Positions 1-3,162 of a stretch of 64,000 nt of DNA are shown here, piece by piece (position 1 is the first letter of the stretch; each line of letters opens with the position of its first letter). A program made the position numbers and the translations under genes. The notes below the pieces were generated by a model. It saw only the letters and a list, made by a program, of their open reading frames with translations. It did not search any database and had not been told where the DNA came from. The stretch spans positions 3,480,603-3,544,602 of the forward strand of contig NZ_CP079105.1 in the NCBI RefSeq assembly GCF_019285775.1, read 5' to 3'. The DNA is from Skermania piniformis (GTDB taxonomy: Bacteria; Actinomycetota; Actinomycetes; Mycobacteriales; Mycobacteriaceae).

Positions 1-153
1 GCGACGATGCTGGTCGGCGGGCTGATCGAGACCACGATGAGCTGGCTGGACGGCCGTCTGCCGGTCACCCGGGACGAGTTGGTCGACCGGACCGCCGAAC
101 TGTTCACGGTGGTCGGTGCGCACGTGGCCGCTCAGCCGGCCAACACCGGATAG
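1..153 (+). CDS. TetR-family regulator, C-terminal fragment (gene starts before the window)
   Basis: An open frame runs from base 1 to the TAG at 151-153 and encodes 50 residues. The text (VGGLIETTMSWLDGRL, then DELVDRTAELFTVVG) looks like the last two helices of the ligand/dimer domain of TetR regulators, where a GGL..L..WLDGRL..SRE.LV pattern is common. The DNA-binding part lies outside the window, so the target cannot be inferred. The stop overlaps by 22 bases the end of the convergent barstar gene. Assignment to TetR is by resemblance of the C-terminus only. Confidence 0.6.
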   Translation, partial: ATMLVGGLIETTMSWLDGRLPVTRDELVDRTAELFTVVGAHVAAQPANTG

Positions 154-626
154 CCGGCGGGCGGTCCGAGCCGGAGCAGTCGGAACGCGACGTCGCGGAC
201 CGACCAGTACGCCGCCGCGTCGGCCATCGCGGCATCGAACCACGCGCGCTCCGCCGGCACATCGGCAAGGAGTTCGGCGGCATCTCGCAGCACCACGACG
301 TACCCGGCCGCCGGGCCGACCCATTCATCCAGGTCGCGCAGGCACTCGTCGAAAGCGTCCTTGTTGCCGCCGAAGTAGTACGGGAACTGCCACGCCGCGG
401 CGAACTCGTCGAACAGCGCCGGCACCGTGCGCATCCGGGAGCCGCGCAGCTCGCGGACCAGATAGCCCTGCGCCGGCAGCGCGACCCGCAACTCGGCAGC
501 CACCGCCGCAGCCACCGGCAGTGCCGCAATCGGCGGTGCCGCCGGATCGGCAAGAAATGCCACAACTGCGGACACGAGCGGTGACCTGTCCGGCGGTGGC
601 GAACTCGGCAAGGGGCGACCGGCCAT
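132..626 (-). CDS. Barstar-family ribonuclease inhibitor
   Basis: A 164-residue protein whose second half carries the barstar core: LRGSRMRT (about 59-67), then LFDEFAAAWQFPYYFGGNKD (71-90), then AFDECLRDLDEW. This is the helix that plugs the active site of barnase-type RNases. D90 aligns with barstar Asp35 and E94 with Asp39, the residues that mimic substrate phosphate, so the acidic character is kept. The first 55 residues are Ala/Pro-rich and specific to this relative. The ATG shares one base with the TGA of the upstream RNase gene (TGATG), so translation is probably coupled. The expected role is cytoplasmic protection against unsecreted RNase. The start fits the coupling and no better start was seen. 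Confidence 0.87.
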   Translation of the reverse strand: MAGRPLPSSPPPDRSPLVSAVVAFLADPAAPPIAALPVAAAVAAELRVALPAQGYLVRELRGSRMRTVPALFDEFAAAWQFPYYFGGNKDAFDECLRDLDEWVGPAAGYVVVLRDAAELLADVPAERAWFDAAMADAAAYWSVRDVAFRLLRLGPPAGYPVLAG

Positions 627-1042
627 CAGCGCATCCTCACGAACGTTTCGTAGTGGTCTCCGGTGTACCAGGCGGACCCGTCACTACCGGTGACAATGCG
701 CTCCGCGTCCCGGGATCGACCCGGCCGCTTCGGGTTCACGTCCCACTCGCGGTAACGGATCGGCGTCCCGGCCGCGCCGATCCGCGGCAGCCGGCCCTCC
801 CGATTCGCCCAGCCATCGCCCCCCTTGGTTCCCGGCGCCGCATCGGCCGGCCATCGCCCCGCGTCGATCTCCCGCAGGGTGCTGCCGGCCTGTGCCGGCA
901 CCGCGTCGGGGACCTGCGACGACGCGCGGCCGGGCGGAACGGAGGTCTCCGGGGCGGTCGGTCCGCATCCGGTCAGCACCGTGAGGAGCGCGAGGAGCGC
1001 GGCGACCAGCACGGCAGTAGCCGATCGCGGCGAGTGGGTCAC
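626..1042 (-). CDS. Barnase-type extracellular ribonuclease, putative lipoprotein
   Basis: A 138-residue protein with a hydrophobic N-terminus (residues 8-24) ending in the lipobox LTGC (Cys26), so it is probably exported and lipid-anchored or released. The C-terminal part from GDGWANREGRLP matches the microbial guanyl-specific RNase fold. E99 in YREWDVN, R111 and R115 in the RDAERIV segment, and H130 in GDHYETF align with barnase Glu73, Arg83, Arg87 and His102, so all catalytic residues appear present. It would cleave single-stranded RNA outside the cell. The gene is directly followed, with a one-base overlap, by its barstar-like inhibitor, as in other secreted RNase/inhibitor pairs. A role in nutrient scavenging or competition is inference. 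Confidence 0.85.
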   Translation of the reverse strand: MTHSPRSATAVLVAALLALLTVLTGCGPTAPETSVPPGRASSQVPDAVPAQAGSTLREIDAGRWPADAAPGTKGGDGWANREGRLPRIGAAGTPIRYREWDVNPKRPGRSRDAERIVTGSDGSAWYTGDHYETFVRMR

Positions 1043-1109
1043 CGGGTGAACCTACAATGCAAGTAGTGATCTGATCGCAACGCTGCGATCCGGCAGGAAG
1101 GCGCCGACG

Positions 1110-1964: not shown

Positions 1965-2155
1965 CGGAGCGTGTCTCCTGATATGCACGTCGACCGACCC
2001 GGGAGTGGATGACCGACTGTCATCCGAAAGACCGATACCCGGAAACCATTTCCGACTCTAACGTACGAGGAAGGGACGCTTGCGGCTTCGCCTCGACGAC
2101 GGCCGATTCGCCGGCGCCCGGAACTCGATGTCGATCCGAGGTAAGGAGGCCGGCC

Positions 2156-2311
2156 ATGGCCGGTTCGAAGTGCAACAAGTGTTCTCGCCCATTGCTCGAC
2201 TGCCAAGGCTGTAAGGGCGGACGCGCCACAAGCAACGTGTTCGGTGCGCTGACGTGCAGCCGTTGCACGAAGGGGCAGGTCTGCGCAGAACACGGCAAGC
2301 ACTGGGAGTAA
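2156..2311 (+). CDS. Small cysteine-rich (zinc-ribbon-like) protein
   Basis: 51 residues with eight cysteines: CNKC, CQGC, then CSRC and a final C before AEHGKHWE. The paired CxxC motifs suggest one or two zinc-binding knuckles. The ATG at 2156 is chosen over an upstream in-frame start because AAGGAGG sits at 2143-2149 at ideal distance and because the cysteine pattern begins right after it. It is followed after 9 bases by a membrane-protein gene in the same direction, so the two are probably co-transcribed. No enzymatic function is apparent. A role in nucleic-acid or protein binding would be a guess. Confidence 0.7.
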   Translation: MAGSKCNKCSRPLLDCQGCKGGRATSNVFGALTCSRCTKGQVCAEHGKHWE

Positions 2312-2320
2312 CGCGCCCAG

Positions 2321-2998
2321 ATGGCTGACCGCACCCCCCAGTTCGGACCGTTCATCTGCGGATTGATGGGTGCGGTCGCCCTCGGCGCACTTGCGTCGAC
2401 AATGGCAGCCGACCCGGCCGAGACAGCGGTCCTCGCGATCGGTATGGGAATCGCCGCGGCGACGTTCGGCTCCGCTGCGTACCTGCGCACCGTCGCGCAA
2501 TGGTTCTACTCGGCACTCGGCGTCATCGCGGCCATTCCGGTGGCGATCAGCTTCCTGCAGGACAGCCAGTGCAGTACTGCTTCCCCCGCCCTTCGCTATG
2601 CGGTGTTCGCGTTGCTGTTTCTGCTGGCCGCGTTGGGCTTCGGGCTCGCCGCTGTCGCCGGCAAGCTGTCGTCTGCGGTCGGCCTCGGCTGGTTCGGCGC
2701 GTTGGAGATTCTCACGTTCATGACCTCACCGCTGGCCGTGGACGTCCTCGGGGACACCGCGATTCCGCTTGCGTTGATGGTGCTCGTCGCTGCGCCGTTC
2801 GGCGCGCTGGCCGCCTATCAGCCAGAAGCCGTGCTTGCGGTAGCCGGAACCCTGATCGCGATCGAGGAAATCGGCGCAGCGCAGCTCCCCACCACCTGCG
2901 GTACGTCCGGCAACTCCAGCGGCATCGTGCTCATCATCGTGTTCACAATCACCTACGCGGCCGTCCGAGCGGTAGCCCGAAAGGTCCGCCAGAACTGA
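2321..2998 (+). CDS. Hypothetical polytopic membrane protein
   Basis: 225 residues with about six hydrophobic segments (roughly 12-30, 35-55, 62-80, 90-115, 145-175 and 198-217), a short polar N-terminus and a basic C-terminus (ARKVRQN). No family motif was recognised. It follows the small Cys-rich gene after 9 bases and is convergent with icd. A two-cysteine loop (LPTTCGTS, and the QCSTAS segment between segments 3 and 4) could form a disulfide on the outside if the topology is N-in. The function is unknown. Confidence 0.7.
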   Translation: MADRTPQFGPFICGLMGAVALGALASTMAADPAETAVLAIGMGIAAATFGSAAYLRTVAQWFYSALGVIAAIPVAISFLQDSQCSTASPALRYAVFALLFLLAALGFGLAAVAGKLSSAVGLGWFGALEILTFMTSPLAVDVLGDTAIPLALMVLVAAPFGALAAYQPEAVLAVAGTLIAIEEIGAAQLPTTCGTSGNSSGIVLIIVFTITYAAVRAVARKVRQN

Positions 2999-3162
2999 GG
3001 AATTGCCGACCGGCGTTGCCGAGGACTGCGCACCTCGGAACGGCGGCGGTACTTCGGGCGTACTTTTCCGCGGTGGCGGCCGGAGTGCGTTCGGCCCAGT
3101 CGGAACAATCGGCGTCGGCGGCCGGTCCGGTGTCTGCCGGGCAAACCACCGACAAGGCGGAA

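What the first reader, a model, noticed from the sequence alone, without database searches (positions are those of the whole stretch)
132..1042. Lipoprotein barnase-type RNase coupled with barstar
All barnase catalytic residues are present, and the inhibitor follows by TGATG. The RNase is a predicted lipoprotein rather than freely secreted, which is unusual for barnase relatives and suggests contact-dependent or surface RNA processing.
Basis: partly seen in the sequence, partly recalled or inferred. Interest (0 to 1): 0.5.

Follow-up and report, generated by a model that had tools for sequence, protein, structure and literature searches.

The report
Membrane-tethered barnase-like RNase with barstar
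A small RNA-cutting enzyme that is probably pinned to the outside of the cell membrane is made together with its own inhibitor; such tethered pairs turn out to be ordinary in actinobacteria, and they look like a separate branch from the freely secreted, probably phosphate-regulated enzymes.

Summary
Window 626-1042(-) encodes a 138-aa barnase-like RNase with a lipobox (LTGC). A barstar-family gene follows at 132-626(-) through TGATG. The core catalytic residues E99, R111, R115 and H130 are present; by inference barnase Lys27 has no counterpart.

"Unusual for barnase relatives" does not hold. Of 46 orthologues in the same bacterial family, all 46 have barstar directly downstream, 33 are called transmembrane-anchored, 11 have a lipobox and 2 look freely secreted. 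Lipid and transmembrane anchors swap several times. Of 138 actinobacterial RNases read, those without the RNase Sa-type cysteine pair are nearly all tethered (82 of 85) and next to barstar (83 of 85). Those with the pair are mostly free (38 of 53), and 32 of 53 lack an adjacent barstar. PHO-box-like repeats lie upstream of 20 of 39 free RNases but 1 of 97 tethered ones.

Best reading: a chromosomal, envelope-tethered guanyl RNase whose cysteine-free domain can fold in the cytoplasm, so it needs co-translated barstar. It is distinct from phosphate-scavenging secreted RNases. I found no support for contact-dependent killing. The trait associations rest on few independent evolutionary changes; anchors are pattern-based calls; the physiological role is inferred.

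The parts
626..1042 (-). barnase-like guanyl RNase gene, 138 aa, GTG start
   Evidence: PF00545 58.3 bits; PDB binase/barnase matches
965..1042 (-). signal peptide with lipobox (residues 1-26, LTGC, lipid-acceptor Cys26 predicted)
   Evidence: translation; Lgt and LspA in genome; hydrophobic core scan
899..964 (-). Pro/Ser/Thr-rich linker, residues 27-48, mostly low pLDDT
629..898 (-). catalytic domain, residues 49-138; E99, R111, R115, H130
   Evidence: block means of pLDDT 90 or more from residue 51; the four residues invariant in 46 of 46
132..626 (-). barstar-family inhibitor gene, 164 aa, start overlaps the RNase stop (TGATG)
   Evidence: PF01337 78.9 bits; mean pLDDT 93
459..626 (-). N-terminal extension of the barstar, residues 1-56, outside the Pfam barstar match
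1073..1090 (.). perfect 7-bp-arm palindrome GATCGCA-ACGC-TGCGATC in the divergent intergenic region, possible operator
   Evidence: only perfect copy in the window

Best explanation
This is an RNase-inhibitor operon of the barnase-barstar kind whose enzyme is tethered to the outer face of the cytoplasmic membrane. The RNase is exported by the Sec route and, here, is lipidated at Cys26; most orthologues appear to use an uncleaved transmembrane signal anchor instead. Its domain lacks the disulphide cysteines of RNase Sa, so it can fold and cut RNA in the cytoplasm. Barstar, translated from the overlapping stop/start, neutralises any molecules that have not been exported. Outside, the tethered enzyme degrades RNA (at guanosines, by family) at the envelope, constitutively, as a housekeeping function, and not as part of the phosphate-starvation response that appears to drive the freely secreted disulphide-bonded RNases. 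Shown by sequence: gene pair, core active-site residues, coupling, anchor signals, locus conservation, lack of a PHO-box-like dyad at the threshold used. Inferred: lipidation, topology, activity and specificity, inhibition, physiological role.
For: Barstar directly downstream in 46 of 46 orthologues. Start overlaps the RNase stop in 40 of 46, by TGATG in 28 and by -1 overlap in 12. E99, R111, R115, H130 invariant in 46 of 46. Model matches binase/barnase and RNase Sa2. N-termini: 33 transmembrane, 11 lipobox, 2 Sec-like; hydrophobicity of the TM set is far above that of the 20 class A proteins without a lipobox, medians 2.66 and 1.78, p=4e-9. Lipobox versus other anchor needs 5 changes on the RNase+barstar tree, at least 3 on well supported branches; the window's pair groups with TM-anchored Nocardia (support 94/83, not starred). 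Survey of 138: no Cys pair gives barstar adjacent 83 of 85; Cys pair 21 of 53. In 8 genomes of family f4 that hold both kinds among the rows read, tethered copies are coupled 8 of 8 and free copies 0 of 8. PHO-box-like dyads at 11-nt spacing: free 20 of 39, tethered 1 of 97; spacings tried other than 11 and 22 gave free 0 to 8 of 39; 0 of 150 permuted units reached 20. xthA on the same strand in 37 of 46 and trpS downstream in 32 of 46 within the DNA held; own trpS about 2.2 kb downstream on the same strand.
Against: The trait associations are not independent of ancestry: only 4 to 8 changes on the domain tree and 2 starred independent pairs, so no phylogenetic significance. Within the window's own family the Cys-pair class breaks the rule: 13 of 13 free ones have barstar next to them, and 7 of 7 TM-anchored ones of genus g3 do not. 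Anchor calls are pattern-based; I corrected 6 anchor calls (4 lipobox to free, L024 and L025 free to TM) and 7 cysteine calls by hand. Of the 33 TM-called class B proteins, 8 have an A.A motif after the core and might be cleaved. Two orthologues (genus g8) look freely secreted. The PHO-box contrast depends somewhat on the stretch taken: if it runs 10 to 20 bases past the start codon, 4 to 5 of 46 class B rows also reach the threshold (1 of 46 if it runs 250 or 300 bases upstream without passing the start); free class A stays at 8 of 13 throughout. Lys27 appears to be missing. In the barstar, the position inferred for Asp39 is Glu in 29 of 46 and Asp in 17. No activity, lipidation or expression data.
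Confidence: 0.6

Rival explanations
1. A surface-displayed toxin with immunity protein for contact-dependent or lysis-linked competition between bacteria.
For: RNase followed by its inhibitor is the toxin-immunity gene order, and Zhang et al. 2012 say simple barnase-barstar pairs might be an incipient form of it (PMC3482391, passages; author name recalled). Surface tethering would fit contact.
Against: No further domain in the 138-aa protein; no PADLOC match; relatives sit beside xthA and trpS rather than at varied places. The 46 orthologues keep one RNase domain, but they were chosen for it, so this weighs little.
Confidence: 0.12
2. A phosphate- or nucleotide-scavenging RNase like the Bacillus enzymes, merely kept on the surface.
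For: Balifase and binase synthesis is induced by phosphate starvation (PMC5021464, abstract passage). One perfect GTTCACC unit lies just before the window's start codon. With a stretch that passes the start codon, 4 to 5 of 46 class B rows reach the dyad threshold.
Against: The window scores 10 of 14 for a PHO dyad, below the threshold of 11. Tethered RNases reach it in 1 of 97, free ones in 20 of 39. GTTCACC occurs 29 times in the window, both strands.
Confidence: 0.2
3. The RNase is freely secreted: the lipobox is fortuitous, or the anchor is cut later in the linker.
For: Two orthologues of genus g8 look Sec-cleaved. Pattern-based lipobox calls produced false positives in other rows (corrected).
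Against: Good lipobox context, lipid-modification genes present, lipobox in 5 of 5 class B proteins of genus g31 and 3 of 5 of genus g14, and TM anchors in the sister clade.
Confidence: 0.15

Closest known systems
Barnase-barstar (Bacillus amyloliquefaciens) and binase
   Same: catalytic domain fold and core residues, C-terminal ...IR/MR, barstar-family inhibitor
   Different: an RNase-inhibitor operon is not characteristic of barnase and binase, and these enzymes are secreted (PMC5021464 passages); here overlapping genes, lipobox, no Lys27 counterpart (inferred), inhibitor has a 56-residue N-terminal extension
Balifase-YrdF operon (Bacillus licheniformis)
   Same: RNase and barstar-type inhibitor in one operon, which that paper calls unique (PMC5021464 passages)
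   Different: extracellular enzyme, induced by phosphate starvation; here predicted tethered, without a PHO-box-like dyad at the threshold used
RNase Sa family of Streptomyces
   Same: PF00545; RNase Sa2 is also matched by the model
   Different: RNase Sa-type enzymes have a cysteine pair and those read here are mostly free (38 of 53); the window's enzyme has no cysteine outside the lipobox
Polymorphic toxins with Tox-Barnase and Imm-Barstar
   Same: toxin-then-immunity gene order (PMC3482391 passages)
   Different: no delivery architecture in the protein

Membership tests
Microbial RNase N1/T1 (PF00545), barnase-like branch | family profile score over the curated cut-off | tested here: met
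   58.3 against 24 bits
Microbial RNase N1/T1 (PF00545), barnase-like branch | catalytic Glu, two Arg, His | tested here: met
   aligned with binase, 46 of 46
Microbial RNase N1/T1 (PF00545), barnase-like branch | barnase Lys27 | tested here: not met
   A50 by helix register; register inferred, numbering recalled. RNase Sa lacks it too (recalled), so it marks barnase itself, not the family
Barnase-barstar pair | barstar-family inhibitor encoded with the RNase | tested here: met
Barnase-barstar pair | barstar inhibits this RNase | not testable with these tools
   needs a binding assay; the position inferred for barstar Asp35 is Asp in 45 of 46, that for Asp39 is Asp or Glu in 46 of 46 (numbering recalled)
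Bacterial lipoprotein | lipobox after basic and hydrophobic stretch, Lgt and LspA in genome | tested here: met
Bacterial lipoprotein | lipid on Cys26 | not testable with these tools
   experiment needed
RNase Sa-type secreted enzyme | cysteine pair at the ends of the domain | tested here: not met
   no Cys outside the lipobox
Polymorphic toxin | delivery or repeat domains joined to the toxin domain | tested here: not met
   138-aa protein, no Pfam domain over its cut-off but PF00545
Pho regulon member | two GTTCACC-like units at 11-nt spacing upstream | tested here: not met
   best score 10 of 14, threshold 11; consensus from PMC4415409 and PMC7244524 (passages)

The most novel reading that the evidence does not exclude
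Actinobacteria keep two functionally separate guanyl RNase systems. One is soluble, disulphide-locked and under PhoP, for scavenging phosphate. The other is tethered, cysteine-free, locked to a co-translated barstar and constitutive, and acts as a fixed RNA-degrading surface on the membrane, possibly against RNA from lysed neighbours or incoming foreign RNA. The tether, by lipid or transmembrane helix, and the inhibitor are then parts of one design.
Probability: 0.3. Interest if true: 0.6.

Novelty: new variant of a known kind. Interest (0 to 1): 0.42.

Why it matters
Barnase-barstar is a textbook secreted-enzyme and intracellular-inhibitor pair whose natural role is, to my recollection, still unsettled. 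If actinobacterial cysteine-free barnase-like enzymes are as a rule tethered and, unlike their disulphide-bonded cousins, lack PHO-box-like repeats, then the role of the inhibitor (protection against a domain that folds inside the cell) and the role of the enzyme (a fixed envelope function) can be tested by comparing two paralogues in one laboratory Streptomyces.

Tried and rejected
PADLOC gave no match; PHROGs gave only a weak match to the signal-peptide region, E=0.02. The barstar fold search gave no match at E<=0.001; the best rows mix MuB, barstars and origin-recognition proteins, so the N-terminal extension stays unexplained. My first cysteine and anchor calls were faulty: a first cut of the domain hid the N-terminal Cys, and a lipobox pattern swallowed 'ISSC' and 'LPSC' in 7 rows. 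I corrected these by hand and report the corrected counts. Idea that only tethered RNases carry an adjacent barstar: rejected as a general rule, because free class A enzymes of the window's family are coupled 13 of 13 and TM ones of genus g3 0 of 7. Independent-pair tests could not reach significance. The first PHO-box scan (13 of 71 family rows at the threshold) ran 10 bases into the coding sequence and caught 4 class B rows at the start codon (L035, L041, L050, L062); the later scans stop at +5 or earlier and lose them. Literature: searches for barnase+barstar+lipoprotein, barstar+Actinobacteria+ribonuclease, barnase+barstar+Nocardia, barnase+membrane-anchored+extracellular ribonuclease (two of three), ribonuclease+barstar+Corynebacterium, barnase+barstar+gene neighborhood+signal peptide (three of four), barstar+Streptomyces+RNase Sa listed no paper that, by title and start of abstract, describes tethered barnase-barstar operons; two searches listed 20 of 62 and 20 of 32 papers, and most papers of subscription journals are not held.

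Full report
What is there. The first kilobase of the window holds two overlapping genes on the minus strand. The first (626-1042) encodes a 138-residue RNase of the N1/T1 family (PF00545, 58.3 bits); the second (132-626) encodes a 164-residue barstar-family protein (PF01337, 78.9 bits). Stop and start share a base, TGATG. The closest solved structures by sequence are binase and barnase (best E=2e-9), and the AlphaFold model of the domain, with block means of pLDDT of 90 or more from residue 51, matches the same proteins and RNase Sa2. The barstar model has mean pLDDT 93; its best structural neighbours include barstars, but none passes E=0.001. Each is the only match of its family in the genome at E<=0.001.

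Active site. E99, R111, R115 and H130 align with the glutamate, two arginines and histidine of binase (their catalytic roles and barnase numbers are recalled) and are invariant in 46 of 46 orthologues. In the barstar, the position inferred for Asp35 is Asp in 45 of 46 and that for Asp39 is Asp or Glu in 46 of 46 (numbering recalled).

Relatives in the same family. I searched 121 genomes of the window's family with both profiles. There are 73 RNase matches. I read 71 of them; G006:C24 and G065 (a 1718-residue frame) were not read, though both have a barstar next to them. They split into 25 of RNase Sa type (class A, with cysteines) and 46 of barnase type including the window's (class B). Barstar lies directly downstream on the same strand in 46 of 46 class B and 17 of 25 class A genes. 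In class B the barstar start overlaps the RNase stop in 40 of 46: TGATG in 28, a one-base shift in 12. A scan of named genomes with the class B alignment found 392 relatives; the 80 shown are 76 Nocardia and one each of Gordonia, Skermania, Antrihabitans and a metagenome bin. In a sample of 396 genomes of the phylum the same alignment matched 9 at E<=1e-15, 6 of them in the window's family.

Anchors. Of the 46 class B proteins, 33 begin with a long hydrophobic segment that I call a transmembrane anchor, 11 have a lipobox, and 2 (genus g8) look like ordinary Sec substrates. The mean hydrophobicity over the best 19 residues has median 2.66 in the TM set against 1.78 in the 20 class A proteins without a lipobox (p=4e-9). 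Against this, 8 of the 33 have an A.A motif after the core and may be cleaved. On a tree of RNase plus barstar the lipobox needs 5 changes, at least 3 forced by well supported branches. So lipid and transmembrane anchors have replaced each other several times, in an order the unrooted tree does not give. What is kept is attachment. Lgt and LspA are in the genome. Among the 80 named loci the lipobox pattern was found only in Antrihabitans, and in 0 of 76 Nocardia (L130 starts at a contig end and shows no N-terminus), so within Nocardia the lipid form is rare.

Locus. An xthA-like gene (PF03372; called exonuclease III by me from its sequence) lies within 900 bases upstream on the same strand in 24 of 46, and on the same strand somewhere in the DNA held in 37 of 46, downstream in 11 of these. 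trpS follows on the same strand in 32 of 46, and in 62 of the 80 named loci; xthA is upstream in 54 of those 80. In the window's genome trpS (PF00579) lies on the same strand about 2.2 kb downstream; xthA was not found in the 12-kb stretch or the window. This is a stable chromosomal place, not a mobile or polymorphic-toxin setting. PADLOC has no match.

Wider survey. In 394 genomes of the class, 83 PF00545 places lie outside the window's family. I read 67; the 16 left out are low-scoring ones, all under 75 bits. With the family's 71 this gives 138 RNases. Corrected counts: without the RNase Sa-type cysteine pair, 83 of 85 have barstar adjacent and 82 of 85 are tethered; with the pair, 21 of 53 have barstar adjacent and 15 of 53 are tethered. 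In 8 genomes of family f4 (probably Streptomyces, my inference) in which I read both kinds, the tethered copy has barstar next to it in 8 of 8 and the free copy in 0 of 8. Against a simple rule: in the window's family, 13 of 13 free class A enzymes are coupled and 7 of 7 TM-anchored ones of genus g3 are not (two of these seven, L024 and L025, I relabelled from free to TM by hand). The tree of the short domain needs only 4 to 8 changes per trait and gives 2 starred independent pairs, so these associations describe a few old branches and are not independent evidence.

Regulation. PHO boxes of S. coelicolor are direct repeats with 11-nt period and core GTTCACC (PMC4415409 and PMC7244524, passages). 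I set the threshold (11 of 14 matches at 11-nt spacing), before splitting by anchor. Upstream of free RNases outside class B it is reached in 20 of 39; of tethered ones in 1 of 97, L003 (Fisher p=3e-12, not corrected for relatedness). Among spacings 7-15 and 22, only 11 (20 of 39) and 22 (16 of 39) stand out; the others give 0 to 8. None of 150 permuted units reached 20. The hits come from inside f1 (8 of 13) and outside it (12 of 26). The two Sec-like class B proteins have none (0 of 2). The contrast is sensitive at one edge: if the stretch runs 10 to 20 bases past the start codon, 4 to 5 of 46 class B rows also reach the threshold, and 1 of 46 (L031) if it runs 250 or 300 bases upstream without passing the start; free class A stays at 8 of 13 in all eight stretches tried. 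The window itself scores 10 of 14, with one good unit. Bacillus balifase and binase are induced by phosphate starvation (PMC5021464, abstract passage). So the secreted, disulphide-bonded enzymes look like scavengers under PhoP, and the tethered barstar-coupled ones do not.

How it most likely works. A cysteine-free barnase domain can fold in the reducing cytoplasm, so each cell needs inhibitor at hand whenever the enzyme is made, and overlapping genes supply it. A disulphide-dependent domain is safer inside, which would make a linked inhibitor dispensable. Export by Sec and anchoring by lipid or transmembrane helix fixes the active enzyme at the outer face of the membrane. These steps are inference. 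The last one, what RNA it meets there, is open. A housekeeping envelope function is my best guess because of the stable locus beside repair and translation genes and the lack of PHO-box-like repeats.

Known and new. RNase-barstar pairs are known and widespread (PMC3482391, passages), and one Bacillus operon is described (PMC5021464, passages). In the searches named under Tried and rejected I found no description of tethering as the rule, of repeated swaps of anchor, or of the regulatory split. I rate the find as a variant of a known kind, of moderate interest.

Noticed in passing
window 1073-1090: Perfect palindrome GATCGCA-ACGC-TGCGATC between the divergent RNase and alpha/beta-hydrolase genes; the only perfect copy in the window. 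A TetR-like gene (TetR_N 23.2 bits, just under the cut-off of 24) ends at 153 and could bind it.
   Followed up: partly
L004, L014, L015, L178, L179, L168, L197 and others, upstream of free RNase genes: PHO-box-like repeats with 11- and 22-nt spacing upstream of freely secreted disulphide-type RNases inside and outside the window's family.
   Followed up: yes
L003, L021, L023-L027 (genus g3): Transmembrane-anchored RNase Sa-type enzymes with no barstar next to them, and no PF01337 match in those 7 genomes; C. glutamicum among the controls also has the RNase but no barstar match.
   Followed up: partly
G065:C1:207572-207853 and 207201-207455: RNase domain in a 1718-residue open frame with barstar next to it, perhaps a large polymorphic toxin with immunity gene.
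   Followed up: no
window 459-626 (barstar residues 1-56): N-terminal extension of the barstar, partly structured in the model, of unknown role; its length varies among relatives.
   Followed up: partly
G831:C3:37662-38240: Two RNase domain matches side by side, both in a 254-residue frame, without a barstar next to them.
   Followed up: no
window 2009-3000: Two small reading frames (a Cys-rich 100-aa one and a 225-aa hydrophobic one) without Pfam match.
   Followed up: no
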